Source: Hysterium pulicare CBS 123377 (lineage: Eukaryota; Ascomycota; Dothideomycetes; Hysteriales; Hysteriaceae). From it: a DNA stretch of 37,288 bases. Under the pieces are notes generated by a model. The model was given only the letters and a program-made list of their open reading frames with translations, ran no database searches and was not told the origin of the DNA. This document shows positions 17,823-35,965 of this stretch, piece by piece (the first letter of the stretch is position 1; each line of letters begins with the position of its first letter). Where the stretch lies: assembly GCA_000467715.1 (NCBI GenBank), contig AJFK01000352.1, positions 1 to 37,288 of the forward strand. Reading direction: 5' to 3'. A program made the position numbers and the translations under genes.

Positions 17823-18583
17823 TGTGATGGATGTGAAGTTCGAGGAAGAATTGGAGATGGAAGGACGAGTAGTTCAATTGGTGTGGATGGCAATTGGTGG
17901 TGGTTACTGAGAGACCAGGAATGCGAGGAGGTTTTTGTACCCGCCCTCTCATTCTGGACGATGATGGCCCGCCGCCTGACACAGTGACGTAACCAAGGCG
18001 ACGCCCCTAGCTGGCCCTTCTGCCAACTTCACTTTCGCGACCTGGCCCTCCACGGGCCATCATGCGTCCATCATCGACATGGCTAGGATAGAAAAGGGTT
18101 AATAGTGCCCACTTGCATGCGCTCTCCTTTGTGCGATTTGGCCTGCACCTCTCAAACCACATTTTCCATCTCCTTCCACATGTTGAGATGGAGATTCCAG
18201 GCACGTCATTGTTTGGCCGTGCCAAGAACACCCGGTCTGTGCGCAAACCACACGCAACTACACGTGACTGCCCAACGTCAAACCTTCTCTCCAACCCAGT
18301 AACCAAACAATCATCTTGCCCTCAGAGGCGGCCCTTTCACGCTCTTCATGTCCAGAGCGTCTACTGTTGATCACGACTGGCTGTAGATGCCAGAGTACTG
18401 ACACATTTAGGGTTGAGGATTAACAAAAGCGTTCCCCTAGAGACAGGTGGCTATCTGCTTGTCGCACAACAGCTTCAAGTCAGGTCTACTCCACTCATTC
18501 GAACAGGCTCTTTCGACGTGATTTTGATGTTTACCTTCTTCCATTATTTGACCAACCATCTACGGCACCAGCAAGCGTCTGCA
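17823..18583. other. Divergent promoter between DUF1761 and RING genes
   Basis: 761 bp between divergent starts. It contains a CACGTGAC core at 18261-18268. The open frame of the RING gene extends upstream to 18413 without an ATG in better agreement with its paralogue. No separate gene is seen. Confidence 0.5.
18261..18266. promoter_or_regulatory. CACGTG palindrome in divergent promoter
   Basis: CACGTGAC is the classic Cbf1/bHLH core, about 320 bp before the RING gene start. It could serve either divergent gene. Supported by the motif only. Confidence 0.25.
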
Positions 18584-19540
18584 ATGAACGACCAGAACGC
18601 TTTCCAAAATCAGGATGACTTCTTTGCCAGAGGTCTAAGAAACGAAGATCATCTATGCGGAATCTGCCTCGAGCCATATGATGAAAACCACCCTCCAGCC
18701 GTATTTACGTCGGATTGCATGCACGTCTTTGGCCGGCCCTGCATCGAACGATTTCTGTTATCCAATGTTGCAAATTCGAACCGATGCCCGAAATGTCGAC
18801 GCGTTTTATATCAGGCTGCAGCAAAAGAATACTCAGAGGATGATCTCGGATCAGAGGGTCTGGATTCAGACATGGATGACTCTCTTGATGACGAAGATTC
18901 CCTTGGGTCTGAGGATGATGATGATGACGATGACGATGAAGATATGGATGGATCTGATGATGAGGATTCAGACAGTGATGGCGAGGATCAAGACCCCATG
19001 GAACTCGAAGAGCACCTGCAGCGAGAGCATCCCGGTCAACACCCGTACGCCCATCCCACCTTGCCGAGTACGATCATATTTGACGATCAAGTCATCGGGC
19101 TGAGCAGTTCCACTCCAAGGCGCGAGCGGATCACCAAGTTCACATCGAATCTATGGAGCAGGACATGGTTCTTCTACAAAGATCTCATGGAAGACAGACG
19201 TGCTTTCTGGGAAGCCAATTTCCTCGAGTACGAGGCTATCATTCAACTGTTGCATCCACGTCCAAAACCCTATAACCTCTGTGCGGTCGATACCTATCCC
19301 TTTTGCGTGATGGTCGGAATTGCATCGAAGATGGTAGAGATGCATTATTGGAGGAAGAGGAAGGAAGACTTACCACGAATGCGCAGAGATGTCTTTGTAC
19401 GGGAGGTAGAGACTGCGTATGAGGATTGGAGGGATCTGCATACGGGCAAGAACGACCGCAAATTATTGTTCTTTGATCCCGCCGAGTGGAAGCGAGACAT
19501 CGCACAGTTTTCAGGAGACACTATGGTTCCGATGGTATGA
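18584..19540 (+). CDS. RING-like protein with acidic tract (paralogue A)
   Basis: 318 residues, intronless. Start chosen because MNDQNAFQNQDDF places the first zinc ligand at Cys25, exactly as in the paralogue downstream. The RING-like ligands are C25, C28, C45, H47, C53, C68 and C71; the position where classical RINGs have the fifth ligand is Gly50 (CMHVFGRPCIERF). A long Asp/Glu/Ser tract (about 85-145) follows, encoded partly by GAT repeats. Then HPYAHPTLPSTIIFDD and a helical C-terminal domain with TYPFCVMVGIASKMVEM and AYEDWRDLH. RING proteins usually act as ubiquitin ligases; with an altered site this is only a possibility. Confidence 0.8.
   Translation: MNDQNAFQNQDDFFARGLRNEDHLCGICLEPYDENHPPAVFTSDCMHVFGRPCIERFLLSNVANSNRCPKCRRVLYQAAAKEYSEDDLGSEGLDSDMDDSLDDEDSLGSEDDDDDDDDEDMDGSDDEDSDSDGEDQDPMELEEHLQREHPGQHPYAHPTLPSTIIFDDQVIGLSSSTPRRERITKFTSNLWSRTWFFYKDLMEDRRAFWEANFLEYEAIIQLLHPRPKPYNLCAVDTYPFCVMVGIASKMVEMHYWRKRKEDLPRMRRDVFVREVETAYEDWRDLHTGKNDRKLLFFDPAEWKRDIAQFSGDTMVPMV
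18911..18948 (+). repeat. GAT/GAC triplet-rich tract coding for Asp
   Basis: An imperfect run of GAT and GAC codons gives eight consecutive Asp residues inside the acidic region of RING paralogue A. Such triplet runs change length by slippage without breaking the frame. Confidence 0.8.
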
Positions 19541-20330
19541 CCACGTTGTCTTTCTGAGGCAAACTCTTCTTCAGCCAATCCTCGCAGGCCCATCTGACAA
19601 ACATCGACGTTATGGCAGGGGAATCGACACCGGAAATTACGAAATAGTTCCACGACAAGTGCATATACTACACGATGGTCTTATGGGAAGTCCAGATGGG
19701 TAGAATGTTGCAGGTATATCTTGACGCTCAACGCATAGTCCGAGCCCTCCCGGACAGAGGAGTGGGAAATCGTTTCGGCAGCGATATCCTTAACTTCAAA
19801 ATTTGTCGTTTAGTGTTGTGCTTTGATGAACCCTTCATGTAGCTTAACCTACGACATACCTCTATCGAGCAACATATCTTAGTGCACTACTAAAAGGCTC
19901 TCCAAGCGAGGCATCCTCATTGATATCAAATCGATGCCGCTTCAACATTCACCGCTGCACTGTGAATTCAGTCTTGGGGAAGTGATTTGACTGAAGTGAA
20001 ATGGCAATCCATCCTTGACCGCTATGCAAACATACACGTTGTGACATTTCCAGCAAGTTCCACTTTTCCAGTTACTGGTTTATTTGTCCATTGATTTCGT
20101 CCTCCTAGAACCGACGGAGAAGGTGAATGAGAAAGTGAAAAAAAAGCGAAAAGTTAGAGTCACCAGATGGCGAGACCGACATGGAAGGCTTAGCTTTCGC
20201 CGTAAATTCACCTACGAGCATCCATATTCACTTTGTAATACTACCATGTTCTTCACTCTGCAAAATCAACTGCTTTGCCAACCAACCGACTCGCACGCTC
20301 CGCCACTCACTTTCACCACACTTCCAAGGA
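19541..20330. other. Spacer between the two RING paralogues
   Basis: 790 bp. No third RING copy or protein remnant was seen. The reading frame of paralogue B is open back to about 20181, but the first Met that aligns with paralogue A is 20331. The purine-rich patch GTGAAAAAAAAGCG near 20130 precedes the leader. Confidence 0.5.
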
Positions 20331-21077
20331 ATGGACGACGTCACGAAACTACCCTCCAAAGATGACTTTGTATCCAACAATATCGTCGACCTCGAACTCC
20401 AGTGTGGCATTTGCCAGGAAGCTTTCTGCAGCACCCATGTCCCAGTCTACTTCACCGGACCGACGGCTTGCAGACATATATTCGGACGGCAGTGCATTGA
20501 GAAGTGGTTCTCCATGAAACGTGACAACGCCAACACATGCCCGAACTGTCGTGCCGTTCTCTTCGCGCCCCAGGCCGCGCAAGAAACCAACTTTCCTTTT
20601 GCCTTCTCTCTCCATCCGCAGCCGTATCCCCCGTTCCCAACACCGCCACCGGCCCCACTGGGTCGACATCCATATGCGCATCCGGATATGCCAGGCGTCA
20701 TTAGCTACGACGGACACTTGATCAAGCCAACCTACGCCACGCCTTCGATCCAGGAACTCCGCTGGTTCTTGGAACAGCTGGATGATGAGCTCAGCCCACG
20801 GAAGTGGCACAACGTGCTCGTGTCCGAGGAGGAAGCGGCATTGGAGCGCGTCGTTGAGGATCTTGTGCCTCATGAGCATCCTGAGAATCTGAAGCTGCTT
20901 GAGATATATCCCTTTGAGACGTATTTGAGCGTTGCGAAGAACATGTTGCGGAGGAACCGCGAATTGGGTGTTAGGGAGTGGTCGGATACGCGGGGGGGTA
21001 GGTATGTGGTGAGGTTGCAGGTTGCTTATGATACGTGGAGGGTGCGTAGTGAAGGGAGGCTCGATGCTGAGCTTTAG
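20331..21077 (+). CDS. RING-like protein (paralogue B)
   Basis: 248 residues, intronless. MDDVTKLPSKDDF places the first ligand at Cys25, as in paralogue A. Ligands are C25, C28, C47, H49, C55, C70 and C73 with Gly52 in place of the fifth classical ligand (CRHIFGRQCIEKWF). After a Pro-rich linker comes HPYAHPDMPGVISYDG, matching paralogue A, then a helical domain with IYPFETYLSVAKNMLRRN and VAYDTWRVR. It lacks the acidic tract of paralogue A. The two genes are head-to-tail, 790 bp apart, and derive from an old tandem duplication. Molecular role unknown; ubiquitin-related function is possible. Confidence 0.82.
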   Translation: MDDVTKLPSKDDFVSNNIVDLELQCGICQEAFCSTHVPVYFTGPTACRHIFGRQCIEKWFSMKRDNANTCPNCRAVLFAPQAAQETNFPFAFSLHPQPYPPFPTPPPAPLGRHPYAHPDMPGVISYDGHLIKPTYATPSIQELRWFLEQLDDELSPRKWHNVLVSEEEAALERVVEDLVPHEHPENLKLLEIYPFETYLSVAKNMLRRNRELGVREWSDTRGGRYVVRLQVAYDTWRVRSEGRLDAEL

Positions 21078-30968: not shown

Positions 30969-32611
30969 TCCAGCCCGGTCTTGAGCGCATCGGCCTTCTC
31001 CTGAAAAACACCCCGTTGCCGTGGAAGGCTATCCATGTTGCTGGCACGAACGGGAAGGGCACCATATGCGCCTTTGCCGCCAGGCTGCTAACGCGGAGGA
31101 CCATCAAGTGTGGCCGTTTTACATCCCCGCATATCATCAACAGGTATGCGTGCCGTCACGTGCACTGGTGGACTCTAGAGCTGCAGCTAACGACAATCTG
31201 AAGATGGGACTGTATTGAGATCAACGATTCACCTATTGCAGAACAACTTTTCCGAGAGGTTGAGGCTGACGTTCTCAAACGAAACGAGGCGGAACAGATC
31301 AAAGCCTCCGAATTCGAGATTCTGACTGCAACTGCCTTCGAAATCTTCACTAAAATGAAGGTTCAGGTTGGCGTTGTGGAAGTCGGTATGGGTGGCAAAC
31401 TCGACGCTACCAACATACTGAAGTCGCCCTTGGTAACCGTCATATCCAAGATCGGACTTGATCATCAAGGCTGGCTGGGTAATACCGTCGAAGAAATAGC
31501 AAGGCAAAAAGCTGGCATCTTCAAACCTGGAGTCCCACGTGTTATTGACCCGTCAAACCCACCCAATGTAATGGCAGCTCTTGAAGAGGTTGCACGAGAA
31601 GTGGGCGCCGGACCATTAGTGACCCCGGATCAGATAGATGCCGACTTCACGGACAATAAACTATGGAGGAAGACCACCGAATCTTGGCCTTCTTTTAAGA
31701 AAAACAACGTCGAATGTGCATGCACCGCGGTGGATTTGGCTTGCAAACAATTAAGCCTGCCTCCACTCAAACCTCGCAAAATGCTACAGGGGCTAAAGAA
31801 CAAAGTCATCCCGGGTCGTTTGCAAAAATTAAAATTTAAACCCGTCACTGGGCCCGCTGGAAACGTTCTTCTTGACGGTGCTCATAATGCAGACTCCGCG
31901 CGAGCGCTTGGGGCGTACGTTAATGAAAGGCTACGAAAGAATCGCGCCAATGCATCAGACACTGGTATTACCTGGGTCCTCGCCATGAGTGACGGAAAAG
32001 ACGCGAGGGAGATACTCAGACCGCTACTTCGGAGGGGGGATAAAGTTGTGACAGTTGAATTCGGCCCTGTCGATGGTATGCCGTGGGTAAAACCAATGTC
32101 TTCCGCCAAGCTACTCGATCTGGCCCGCGAACAAGCTTCACTGGAGTGCGCTTATGATTGTAAGGATGACGTTTTAGCCGCGCTGTTTTTGGGCCAGAAA
32201 GTGGCGAAACATAGGCCTATGGTCATAGCTGGCAGTTTATATCTGGCCGGGGATGTTCTTCGAATTAAGGCAGGGTACCGGGAGCATGTCGACATGTCAA
32301 AGATGAAGAGTAAAGAAAGTGGACGAGCAGAAACGGATAAAGAAACATCAATAGAGGCGTGGAAGGTCGAGAACAAGCTATTGAACACATTGAAGAGAGA
32401 GAAATGGGTAAATGAGCGGAAGGAGAAAGATTCGAAGGAGGCTTCGGCATCCGAAAAGCTATTTCCATTTATAAGGAAGGGGAAGATATGGACCGACGAG
32501 GAAAGGGAAATAGAACGAAGGGCGGAAGACTCGATGCTGGCTTCCGAGCCTGAACAGCTATATCCATTTATAAGGAAAGGGATGGTTCGTCGAAATACTA
32601 TAGGACTATAA
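30965..32611 (+). CDS. FOL3: Dihydrofolate synthase (Mur-ligase fold) with extended tail
   Basis: join(30965..31143,31204..32611), 528 residues. It ligates glutamate to dihydropteroate to make dihydrofolate (EC 6.3.2.12). Seen: MIQPGLERIGLLLKNTPLPW, the P-loop HVAGTNGKGT (about 25-33), FTSPHIINR|WDCIEIND across the intron, EVGMGGKLDATNIL, KIGLDHQGWLGNT, the C-domain LLDGAHNADSARALG (about 282-296), GPVDGMPWVKPM and IAGSLYLAGDVLRI. Start and these motifs align with yeast Fol3 rather than the polyglutamylating Met7. Yeast Fol3 ends shortly after LLRI; here about 110 charged residues follow, containing an internal repeat (KLFPFIRKGK and QLYPFIRKGM). The gene converges on the PKD/papain gene with 103 bp between stops. 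Confidence 0.92.
31144..31203 (+). other. FOL3 intron
   Basis: 60 bp, GTATGC donor, GCTAACG branch and CTGAAG acceptor. The split codon is AG|A. It restores the conserved substrate-binding region. Confidence 0.88.
32440..32582 (+). repeat. Near-direct repeat in the FOL3 tail
   Basis: The 44-base segment at 32440-32483 recurs at 32539-32582 with about eight mismatches, a 99-base (33-codon) period. A third, more diverged copy may start near 32369 (ENKLLNTLKREKW). The repeat builds the charged C-terminal extension. Confidence 0.75.
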
Positions 32612-32714: not shown

Positions 32715-35700
32715 TCAAGACACCATATTTTTAACAGTAAACACAACATTAGCATCATCATTATTCTCATTCAAAAACGCCTGTCTCCCCGTCGTTCCAT
32801 CCTGCTCCAAACTAAAGGCCCCCGGAACCCAATTCTGGTGATGTAGATTAAAGCTCCACCAAACCTTGACACTTCGATCCGGATTCAAGTCAACATTCAG
32901 GCGAAAAATGCCCTTCGCATCCTCAACCTCCTTTTCCAACACGGTTTCTCCGTGCGTACGACCCGGCATGAGGCGAAATTCTTGATGAAATGGTAAATCG
33001 CCCACTTTATTGGTGATATGAAACGGCCAGACGGAGTAGGTGTAATGAACATGGATATTGCCGTCGATGATGACTGTGCGCCTTTCCTCGGGTGGCAGCT
33101 GGAGTACGACGTCTGTGGTGAGTTTGGCGCCTTCTAGATCAACGGTGACATTTGCCTGCAGGAAGATGTTGTTTTGGTATTTGCTCGCTTTGAGGACGTA
33201 TCGACCGTACGGCACGTCGGTGAAAACGTAGTGGCCTGCTGGATCCGTGTAGGATAGCCTGCCGTCGTATAGCTCGATGCGCACGCCAGATAGAGGCTGC
33301 CCTTCGAAGCGTACGATGCCGTCGAGGGCGCCTTTGAGTTGGACGGTGTGCCATTTACTCACGGTTACGGTTGCAAACATTGGCTCGACGTAGTTGACGG
33401 GCTCGACGGAGCCGTAGGGGCCAGCATTGGGCGCGTCGGGTCCATCCCACATCAAGATGTTGTCTGGGCTTACTGCATTGGCGTCAATAGTATCCTTCCA
33501 TTTGTCGTCCCTATCAGCCGTGACGGTTATGTCTCGGGCAAAAGAGTTGAGGATCTCGTTGCTGATGTTCGTTGCCGTCTTCGTAAAGAACTCGAAGATA
33601 CCCGGCTCTTGATCTCTGGCTTGGTCGTATATTTTATCGTGTAGCCAATCCGCCGCTTTTCTGCGCTCGGCAGCATTGTAGAGGAACAGACCATCCGGTG
33701 TGTGTGGCCCGAGCCTAGCTCCAGCTTGTATCTGCGCATCGCTGAGGTCCGCCGCTTTAGTTTCAGGGCCGCTGCCAGAGAGTTGCATGCCATTCTTTTT
33801 CATCATGTACCAAATGAAGCTTGAGCACACTCCTGGCGAGGTTCCCTGACCCCATTTGGCCTCTGGGCCCGCGAGAGAGAAGTTGACAATGGTAGGGTCG
33901 GTGTAGCAGTAGAACCTGTAGTGGAATTTTCCTGTATGTGCGAACGCGTCGTTGGCTACCACCTTCAATTTCTCTCGAACCACATCCGTTTCATTCAATG
34001 GCTTTACAACAAGCGGAGGTATAACGTGCCATTTCCCTGCAATTGTAGCCCCAGACGCTGCGGCATCAAAGCCCTAGATTGCAATGAGCCAACAGTACGA
34101 ACGATGTTATTGAAGTAACCTACCTGGATATTATATTTCTTCCCGTTTTCTGGGTCAGTAAACGGCTCACCGTGAACGCTATTCTCGACAGTCTGGGTAA
34201 CTGCTCCTGGCCAGCCAAACTTCACAACATCAGGGCGGAACCCGTCTGTTGGCTGACCGAAAGAACCGTCGGGGTAATCCATCATACGATCTTCACTAGC
34301 CGTGCAATGTGTTACCTGATCGAAATTCCTTGTCATGATACCGCTATGACTATAAAATTGCGGATAGTCGACCTGGGTCAGCAGTCCACCGATCAATCCA
34401 TTACCACCAGGCGAGAGAACCGCATCTCCTTTATGTGCATTCGCAAAACGCCCAGGGAGTTGCAGCGTTCTTGTCTCCTGGGTTGCTTGGCAAAACGTAT
34501 TGGGGGGAATGTTGTCTGGTAAGTTATCTGGGTCACATTCGCCGCCTTCCACAATGGGTGAGGTAACATCCCTACGAACAATCCCGTGTGGAAGCGTAAT
34601 ATCGTTTGGAAGTGTGATATCGTGTGGGAGCGTGATATCGTGAGGAAGAGTGATATCGTGGGGGATAATGACCTGCGGAAGCTGCCGACCACCAAGAATG
34701 GTGTGTAGTTGATTGCTGAGCTGTGGGCGCAGAGTTCCTATTTGCCGAAAGATCGGAGGATCGACTAAATCATGAAGCTGAGACATCGTCAAGACACCTC
34801 TTGAGTTCCTCTCCAGAATGGTCGACATTTGTTGTAGGATGGGCGTGTTAGTCGCCAGTATTAGGCCTTTGCTGGAGCGCTGGTTGGGACTGAGGTCGAA
34901 CAAGCAATTCGTACGAACTGTCTCTCCGCTAGGTCCCTTGCCGATGAAATAAATAACGAAACCGATGCTGTCTTTCGGAACGCTAGAGAAGGGAACATCT
35001 ACTCCAATTGACCAGATCGATTTATCGGGAACAGTGATAGGCGCAGCAAGTTGTTGAAGAGGACCGAGGCTGTTTGATTCTCTTTCGAACTGCTGCAAAG
35101 GGATGAGTCGGCGATGCGTCAAAGTGATCGAGCGTGGTTCAGGATTTGTGACGTTCATTCGACCAGTGAAGCCCGTATCAGTCCTTCGAGCGAATCCAAT
35201 TGGCTCTGATTTAGGATGCAGTTCATTTCGAGAGCGTTTGAGCATGCCGTACGCATTTGTGAATGTCAGAGTTCTTGTAACTGTTTTTTTCCCGTTCGCA
35301 GTAACAGCGACATCAAAACTTTGATGCTCTACAAGAGGATCCAAAGCGTTTGTGTAGTCATGGTAAACATTGGGAGCTATAGTTTGAAGTTCAACTCCAT
35401 CACCAAAGCTCCAATGATACTGTGCCCGTTCTCCTGCTTTTGGAAGGGTCAGATTAGGCAACAAGAAAATGGATCTGCTCTTCATCGCGTCCGTTGCTGG
35501 GTGTAAATCCAATTGCGACTTCTCTCCGACCCCAAAAGCAACTACATTCTGCTTTTGCGGGAGATGGCCGACTTGCAACATTGGAGTGCCAACAATAGGC
35601 CACTTGAAGTCCGCAATCGAAGATGTTGGGCCTGCAGTGTGCAGAGACTCTGGGTTTTGTTCGTCAACTGGTTCCGCGGAAGCTGTCGGTGATACAGAGC

Positions 35701-35965
35701 TGGGAGGCGCAGGAGCTTTGACGTCTACAAAGGCTTCGGTATATTCTACGCCCTGAGGGCCAATTGCGTGGACGCGAATAACGTTCTTTCCCTCAACATT
35801 AAATTGTACGTAGCGTCTGAAGGTTGGAACCCCATCGATACGGACGGTGTGGGCATACTTTGGGTCAAAGGTCTGACCTGATGCGGGATGGGCTTCGATG
35901 AGTACGCTCTCTCCAATAGCTGGGTTGGTGGGAGTGCAGGACACCTGACCCAGAATTCTCGACAT
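32715..35965 (-). CDS. PKD / permuted-papain (YiiX, C92-like) / carboxypeptidase-regulatory-like protein
   Basis: complement(join(32715..34073,34124..35965)), 1066 residues. Domains in order: beta-sandwich start (1-85); PKD-type fold about 165-235 with YHWSFGDG and NVYHDY; second beta-rich region about 240-380; hexapeptide repeats (LPHDIT) about 434-464; a permuted papain domain with GDAVLS (513), YSHSGIM (His540) and, beyond the intron, GTSPGVCSSFIWYMM (Cys697), the His-before-Cys order of the YaeF/YiiX family; then about 860-930 a carboxypeptidase-regulatory-like domain (GIVRFEGQPLSGVRIELYDG, TDPAGHYVFTDVPYGRYVLK); and a beta-rich C-terminus. Likely a cysteine peptidase or amidase/acyltransferase. 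There is no signal peptide at MSRILGQVSC, so it may be cytosolic or exported unconventionally. This mix is familiar from bacteria, so ancient transfer is possible. Confidence 0.8.
34074..34123 (-). other. Intron in the PKD/papain gene
   Basis: 50 bp, GTAGGT donor, AATCTAG acceptor, phase 0. Removing it joins KKYNIQ to GFDAAASGATIAGKWHVIPP, linking the His half and the Cys half of the papain domain into one protein. Confidence 0.85.
34583..34667 (-). repeat. 18-bp tandem repeat encoding LPHDIT
   Basis: About five imperfect 18-base units (plus-strand core GTGATATCGTG) encode HDITLP/NDITLP hexapeptides, ending in LPHGIV. It lies between the second beta region and the papain domain as a probable spacer or beta-repeat. 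Confidence 0.9.

What the first reader, a model, noticed from the sequence alone, without database searches (positions are those of the whole stretch)
32715..35965. PKD + permuted papain + carboxypeptidase-regulatory-like protein: bacterial-style architecture in a fungal gene
The 1066-residue product joins a PKD fold (WSFGDG), hexapeptide repeats, a His-first/Cys-later papain-like domain (YSHSGIM, then GVCSSF) and a CarboxypepD-regulatory-like domain. I know this combination mainly from bacterial multidomain proteins. A spliceosomal intron separates the catalytic His half from the Cys half, so if acquired it has been domesticated. The absence of a visible signal peptide is odd for such domains. 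It is the strongest candidate here for an undescribed enzyme.
Basis: partly seen in the sequence, partly recalled or inferred. Interest (0 to 1): 0.75.

Follow-up and report, generated by a model that had tools for sequence, protein, structure and literature searches.

The report
Bacterial-type cysteine enzyme in a fungus
A mould carries, with its own added intron, an intact gene of likely bacterial ancestry for a large multi-domain enzyme whose active site resembles that of bacterial lipid-related cysteine enzymes, and whose family, found in many bacterial phyla, has no known function yet.

Summary
Window 35965..32715 (minus strand) encodes 1066 residues; a 50-nt GT..AG intron sits where intronless relatives have nothing. 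The host is a Dothideomycete near Lepidopterella (one protein). Relatives occur at 29 bacterial loci in 11 phyla, 18 of them spanning nearly the whole protein, and in three other named fungi. No Pfam or NCBIfam model covers the catalytic region. His540, His553 and Cys697 are invariant in 108 of 108 aligned relatives. Profile comparison ties both halves, in permuted order, to the YiiX/YaeF (Peptidase_C92) family above all column shuffles; the His half only narrowly. A confident AlphaFold model of a close relative fits, but catalytic distances could not be measured. So: a new family of permuted NlpC/P60 thiol enzymes with Ig/PKD-like and transthyretin-like modules, taken over by fungi. A lipid-acyl substrate is likely by family, not shown. 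Missing signal peptides are a family habit; the hexapeptide repeats are a linker. The number of transfers is open, because the nearest relatives are unnamed metagenome proteins.

The parts
32715..35965 (-). whole gene, 1066-residue protein (start codon 35965..35963, stop 32717..32715)
   Evidence: no second copy found in the genome
34124..35965 (-). exon 1 (residues 1-614)
34074..34123 (-). spliceosomal intron, 50 nt, GTAGGT..CTAG, between the His half and the Cys half
   Evidence: spliced product aligns without insertion to intronless relatives; no RNA evidence
32715..34073 (-). exon 2 (residues 615-1066 and stop)
35714..35965 (-). residues 1-84, Ig-like N-terminal domain, no signal peptide
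35246..35437 (-). residues about 177-240, PKD-like domain with WSFGDG
34880..35227 (-). residues about 247-362, second beta-sandwich
34577..34663 (-). residues 435-463, (PHDITL)n linker; period 18 nt
   Evidence: variable among relatives
34124..34546 (-). catalytic core, His half (residues 474-614) with Cys477/Cys492 pair, GD motif 513-514, His540 (34348..34346), His553 (34309..34307)
33426..34073 (-). catalytic core, Cys half (residues 615-830) with Tyr666 (33920..33918) and Tyr671, Cys697 (33827..33825), helical stretch after the Cys helix, invariant Ser-Pro at 816-817
33093..33338 (-). residues 860-941, carboxypeptidase regulatory (transthyretin-like) domain
32718..33080 (-). residues 946-1066, C-terminal beta-rich domain of unknown kind
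   Evidence: strands 932-1049 of P0001; present in relatives

Best explanation
This is an intact gene that an ascomycete ancestor took from bacteria and that then gained an intron. The protein is a modular enzyme: Ig/PKD-like beta-sandwiches, a linker, a circularly permuted NlpC/P60 (papain-like) thiol domain with a helical stretch after the Cys helix, a transthyretin-like domain and a C-terminal beta domain. Cys697, activated by His540 and helped by His553, attacks an acyl carbonyl and forms an acyl-thioester; a neighbouring conserved Tyr (666 or 671) would face the carbonyl. The thioester is released by water (hydrolase) or passed on (acyltransferase). By family, the acyl group more likely comes from a lipid, lipoprotein or acylated amino acid than from a peptide. 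The beta modules would hold the enzyme on a surface or polymer. Shown here: gene, intron-shaped insertion, architecture, invariant residues, relation to YiiX/YaeF, wide bacterial distribution. Inferred: splicing, catalysis, substrate, place of action, direction of transfer.
For: Gene and intron. Same contig: Tcp11, RING-finger and kinase frames over Pfam cut-offs, a frame with weak MutL-type matches; Tcp11 85% identical to Lepidopterella palustris; G+C of the gene region 0.50-0.52, contig 0.45-0.55. Relatives of matching length and domain order; 29 bacterial loci in 11 phyla, of which 18 match from residue 8 or earlier to 945 or later. H540, H553, C697, C477, C492, S816, P817 invariant in 108 of 108; H540, H553, C697 kept in 19 of 19 loci read, of 29. 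Profile comparison with nine C92 proteins including E. coli YiiX and YaeF: Cys half score 39.7 (HHalign probability 86%) against at most 20.2 in 150 column shuffles; His half 27.6 (probability 17%) against at most 25.7; each aligned to the matching half, H540 on the His of YSH, H553 on the Glu of YiiX's FEA, C697 on the Cys. C92 scores above the NlpC/P60, LRAT and Lnb_N sets for both halves. Model of P0001 from 108 sequences, mean pLDDT 86.4, pTM 0.83: His513 on a strand, His526 on the next, Cys676 at the first residue of a helix, as in the superfamily core (PMC3142127 sections 7 and 8). Lipid leaning of permuted members: fatty acid in YiiX and hydrophobic S1 pocket (PMC3142127 abstract and discussion); phospholipase activity of Tox-Act1 (PMC12994826, passages).
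Against: No Pfam or NCBIfam model reaches the catalytic region of the window protein and C92 is not among the 11 families that match any of 24 members at E <= 0.02. A first comparison with other gap settings was weak (local probability 9%, E 0.0035; global 0.8%). The His half barely exceeds the shuffles, and the stretch after the Cys half gave no sensible match. Fold searches did not reach the catalytic region. The third residue is His, as in canonical peptidoglycan peptidases, not the Glu of YiiX. The profile alignment puts YiiX's active-site Tyr on His665, not on Tyr666, so the fourth residue is unresolved. No signal peptide, though the modules are of extracellular type. The closest relatives are unnamed.
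Confidence: 0.63

Rival explanations
1. The enzyme is a peptidase of the NlpC/P60 kind that cuts bacterial cell-wall peptides, kept by the fungus against bacteria or to feed on them.
For: Third catalytic residue is His553, as in the canonical Cys-His-His set of YkfC (PMC3142127 section 8); the Cys half also matches canonical NlpC/P60 above all 100 shuffles (score 30.6); PKD and Ig-like modules often bind polymers (recalled).
Against: The order of the halves is permuted and C92 scores higher for both halves; the His half does not stand out against NlpC/P60 (14 of 100 shuffles reach it); the S1 site of YiiX was judged unsuited to a peptide (PMC3142127 discussion).
Confidence: 0.2
2. The fungi hold a relic or non-catalytic protein that uses the fold only for binding.
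For: No known role; the window branch is long (0.51, 0.67); the three other fungal gene models lack C-terminal stretches.
Against: The window frame is intact over 1066 residues; His540, His553 and Cys697 equivalents are present in the window protein, P0014, P0015 and P0017.
Confidence: 0.1
3. The gene moved between kingdoms more than once: separate donors gave it to Dothideomycetes and to Chaetothyriales.
For: A clade of the four fungal rows alone is rejected (p-AU 2e-5); Exophiala groups with unnamed P0011 and P0021 (100/100).
Against: The rows that break up the fungi are unnamed and may themselves be fungal: P0028, on a contig of 16.5 kb, loses homology right after a conserved stretch and runs into an unrelated tail, as an unspliced intron would make it (inference from the protein alone). 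Window plus Cryoendolithus and Rachicladosporium as one clade is not rejected (p-AU 0.29).
Confidence: 0.3
4. Bacterial contamination or a chimaeric contig end.
For: The gene is the last large frame on the contig, 1.3 kb from its end; the adjoining frame 31355-32611 matches no Pfam family and was not tested for fungal origin.
Against: It holds an intron-shaped insertion, its composition is that of the contig, fungal genes lie on the same contig and other sequenced fungi have relatives.
Confidence: 0.03

Closest known systems
Peptidase_C92 / YaeF-YiiX family (Pfam PF05708), permuted NlpC/P60
   Same: His-first, Cys-later order; GD motif, YSHxG, CS at the start of a helix; both halves align
   Different: Third residue His instead of Glu; core of about 350 residues against about 200 for whole YiiX; PF05708 not among families matching any of 24 members at E <= 0.02; fused to PKD/Ig-like and transthyretin-like modules
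Tox-Act1 and TseH, secreted permuted NlpC/P60 proteins of bacteria
   Same: Permuted thiol fold in bacteria; Tox-Act1 shown to cut phospholipids (PMC12994826, passages)
   Different: That paper describes conflict-system gene contexts; here no neighbour is shared across bacterial families and none of 10 neighbours scanned is a secretion component. No sequence comparison with them was made.
LRAT / PLAAT lipid acyltransferases
   Same: Permuted; Cys-His-His arrangement (recalled for PLAAT)
   Different: No clear profile match: 7 of 100 (His half) and 2 of 100 (Cys half) shuffles reach the score, with a thin set of five, two of which look canonical
Canonical NlpC/P60 peptidoglycan peptidases (PF00877)
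   Same: Cys half aligns above shuffles; Cys-His-His triad
   Different: Order of halves reversed; His half not above shuffles
Bacterial PKD + CarboxypepD_reg hypothetical proteins (Fontibacillus, Paenibacillus, Rugamonas, Andreprevotia and others)
   Same: Direct relatives of like length and architecture
   Different: Open in one frame, no intron; function equally unknown

Membership tests
Permuted NlpC/P60 superfamily | His half before Cys half | tested here: met
   Each half aligns to the matching half of C92 in that order, above 150 of 150 shuffles, the His half narrowly
Permuted NlpC/P60 superfamily | Invariant Cys and His | tested here: met
   108 of 108; 19 of 19 loci read, of 29
Permuted NlpC/P60 superfamily | Conserved polar third residue | tested here: met
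   His553 in 108 of 108, aligned to the Glu of YiiX
Permuted NlpC/P60 superfamily | Conserved active-site Tyr before the Cys helix | tested here: inconclusive
   Tyr666 in 107 of 108 and Tyr671 in 108 of 108, but the profile alignment puts YiiX's Tyr on the adjacent His665
Permuted NlpC/P60 superfamily | Cys and His close together in the fold | tested here: inconclusive
   Model confident and secondary structure fitting, but no coordinates available; fold searches did not reach this region
Peptidase_C92 (PF05708) | Score over the Pfam cut-off | tested here: not met
   Not listed for the window protein at E <= 1 nor for any of 24 members at E <= 0.02
Peptidase_C92 (PF05708) | Glu as third catalytic residue | tested here: not met
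   His in 108 of 108
Permuted NlpC/P60 superfamily | Hydrophobic S1 pocket / lipid activity | not testable with these tools
   needs coordinates or an assay
Canonical NlpC/P60 (PF00877) | Cys half first | tested here: not met
   Cys697 lies after His540; no PF00877 match listed
Carboxypeptidase regulatory-like domain | Profile and fold match | tested here: met
PKD domain | Profile match with W-x-FGDG | tested here: met
   PKD_4 in 16 and PKD in 14 of 24 members at E <= 0.02, best 7.6e-7; window protein alone E 0.04

The most novel reading that the evidence does not exclude
A previously undescribed family of lipid-acting thiol enzymes, spread through at least 11 bacterial phyla and built for work outside the cell (invariant Cys pair, Ig/PKD and transthyretin-like modules) yet mostly lacking a signal peptide, has been taken over by ascomycetes and is used by them against, or to digest, neighbouring microbes; it leaves the cell by an unconventional route in both kingdoms.
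Probability: 0.2. Interest if true: 0.68.

Novelty: new variant of a known kind. Interest (0 to 1): 0.5.

Why it matters
It defines a catalytic domain that Pfam does not cover, ties it to a superfamily with testable lipid chemistry, and gives an example of a large bacterial-type multidomain enzyme that fungi kept whole and gave an intron. The residues to mutate, and cultured bacterial hosts for gene removal, are in hand.

Tried and rejected
Prediction of P0001 without an alignment gave a useless model (pLDDT 32); it used one of two jobs by oversight, so the catalytic domain could not be folded alone. Foldseek on PDB and on viral models and VIA-align returned matches of beta domains; no C92 structure is in the rows shown, which says little since other domains filled them. 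A profile search of solved structures by sequence hit only the transthyretin-like and PKD parts. PADLOC found nothing in 5 proteins and PHROGs nothing in 6. Phage records hold no relative of P0040, plasmid records none of P0100. PF05708 in the host fungus: no match in six frames.

Gene context: close relatives among Oxalobacteraceae share many neighbours; of these a BTAD-type regulator (BTAD domain over cut-off in L005) recurs downstream in 8 loci. Outside that family no neighbour is shared next to the gene. Two loose clusters (numbers 1 and 11) recur in 8 and 5 loci at other distances and were not identified. Ten neighbours scanned, one from each of 10 loci, are unlike each other: PLP enzyme, AraC regulator, apiosidase-like, solute-binding protein, biotin carboxylase, two permeases, BTAD, two without match. 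Context does not reveal function. Five locus genes were first called on the wrong strand and read correctly.

The invariant Ser-Pro at 816-817 resembles the SP motif of C92 tails by eye, but the profile alignment did not place it there, so I do not claim it. Papers: the searches showed no title or abstract start that describes this family; they cover open-licence PMC papers only, and I saw the listings, not the papers, apart from the two cited.

Rows dropped before counts: one search listed 120 of 195 hits. A1 holds the window and 23 of those 120; A2 holds 108 of them. The tree uses 50 of the 120 and 13 of 29 loci, that uses 28 of the 120 and 3 of 29 loci. One search uses 19 of 29 loci. The genome scan used two peptide patterns, so it is not exhaustive. 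The 149 proteins are 120 listed and 29 locus proteins, with some duplicates and fragments; 12 passed the hydropathy mark and I judged two of them (L022, L028) to be signal peptides by eye. In the third protein search (43 proteins) simple patterns found HxG in 40 and CS in 36; whether the rest are fragments was not checked.

Full report
Gene. On the minus strand two long frames, 35965..34004 and 33998..32715, join into 1066 residues without a stop when a 50-nt stretch, 34123..34074, that begins GTAGGT and ends CTAG is removed. The residues on either side (YNIQ/GFDAAA) align gap-free with P0001 (WNLQGFDASA), which is open in one frame, so the stretch is an insertion of exactly intron form. No RNA data were available. 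A search of the 37.2-Mb genome in six frames found only these two exons. The same contig carries Tcp11, RING-finger and kinase frames and one with weak MutL-type matches; its Tcp11 is 85% identical to that of Lepidopterella palustris, so the host is, by this one protein, a Dothideomycete of that neighbourhood. G+C of the gene region (0.50-0.52) is within the contig's range (0.45-0.55).

Relatives. A search with residues 480-1066 found 195 proteins at E <= 0.001, of which 120 are listed. The best is P0001, 58% identical over the whole query, 1052 residues, unnamed. Named ones in the list are fungal (Cryoendolithus antarcticus, Rachicladosporium sp., Exophiala xenobiotica) or bacterial. A pattern-based scan of one genome for each of 84,980 bacterial and archaeal species gave 29 bacterial loci in 11 phyla; 18 of the 29 matches run from residue 8 or earlier to 945 or later, the rest are partial or differ in architecture, such as L022 with a thioredoxin-like domain in front. 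A further branch of shorter proteins, one from Bacillus thuringiensis, came from a search with a core profile (43 proteins).

Tree. In a quick tree of 64 rows the window and the three named fungi fall in one set of 10 rows with six unnamed metagenome proteins (SH-aLRT 100); named bacteria of many phyla lie on other branches. In a careful tree of 32 rows the window, the other fungi, P0001, P0002, P0011, P0021 and P0028 form a 9-row clade (98/98) inside a 12-row clade (100/100). The four fungal rows alone as one clade are rejected (p-AU 2e-5); the three Dothideomycete rows are not (p-AU 0.29). If the unnamed rows are bacterial there were several transfers; if they are fungal, one may suffice. 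P0028, on a 16.5-kb contig, loses homology right after a conserved stretch and runs into an unrelated tail, which looks like a read-through into an intron and hints that it is fungal. The direction from bacteria to fungi follows from breadth, 11 phyla against a few ascomycetes, and is an inference.

Enzyme. His540, His553 and Cys697 are invariant in 108 of 108 relatives; Tyr671 too, Tyr666 in 107; the pair Cys477/Cys492 in 108, which suggests a disulphide and so an oxidising place of work (inference). Nineteen of 29 bacterial loci were read at these sites and all keep His540, His553 and Cys697. No Pfam or NCBIfam model covers this region. A first profile comparison was weak (local probability 9%, E 0.0035). 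With columns filled in at least half of the rows it gave probability 57%, E 1e-4; by halves, Cys half score 39.7, probability 86% (150 shuffles: maximum 20.2), His half 27.6, probability 17% (maximum 25.7), with H540 on the His of YSH, H553 on the Glu of YiiX and C697 on its Cys; YiiX's active-site Tyr falls on His665, beside Tyr666, so the fourth residue is open. Against canonical NlpC/P60 only the Cys half stands out (30.6, 0 of 100 shuffles; His half 14 of 100). Against LRAT 2 of 100 (Cys) and 7 of 100 (His) shuffles reach the score, against Lnb_N 8 and 43; the sets differ in size and the LRAT set is thin and impure. The AlphaFold model of P0001 from 108 sequences (pLDDT 86.4, pTM 0.83) has the order of elements of the superfamily core described in PMC3142127 (sections 7 and 8): His513 on a strand, His526 on the next, Cys676 at the first residue of a helix. 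I could not measure distances, and the fold searches matched only the beta domains.

Function. Permuted members are lipid-leaning: a fatty acid sits in YiiX and the S1 pocket is hydrophobic (PMC3142127, abstract and discussion), and Tox-Act1 cuts phospholipids (PMC12994826, passages). I therefore expect Cys697 to form an acyl-thioester from a lipid or acylated amino-acid substrate. A peptidoglycan peptidase remains the main rival, because the third residue is His. The Ig/PKD-like and transthyretin-like modules suggest contact with polymers or surfaces.

Secretion. A crude hydropathy count over 120 listed proteins and 29 locus proteins (with duplicates and fragments) flagged 12, of which only L022 and L028 look like signal peptides; P0253 of the shorter branch also seems to have one by eye. 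None of 10 neighbouring genes scanned is a secretion component; the remaining neighbours were not annotated.

Verdict. A real, intact, domesticated gene of likely bacterial ancestry; a new family within the permuted NlpC/P60 superfamily; chemistry likely acyl transfer or hydrolysis; biological role open.

Noticed in passing
L003-L007, L018, L019, L021, downstream of the family gene: In 8 Oxalobacteraceae loci a protein of about 1060-1140 residues follows the gene (a few frames further on in L003); in L005 it holds a BTAD regulator domain and, by eye, an ATPase-like N-terminal part.
   Followed up: partly
L022:8360-12787: The Phycisphaerales member carries an AhpC/TSA thioredoxin-like domain in front of the core and a signal-peptide-like start.
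   Followed up: no
P0280: A 619-residue metagenome protein combines a piece of the core with glyoxalase and GNAT acetyltransferase domains; it may be a gene-calling fusion.
   Followed up: no
P0241-P0283: A second branch of shorter proteins, many 760-820 residues long, one of them in Bacillus thuringiensis (P0247), shares the core; of 8 proteins scanned none matches a PKD family.
   Followed up: partly
window 18413-19540 and 20181-21077, plus strand: Two neighbouring RING-finger protein frames on the same strand.
   Followed up: no
window 31355-32611, plus strand: The frame next to the finding (418 residues, about 100 bases away) matches no Pfam family.
   Followed up: no
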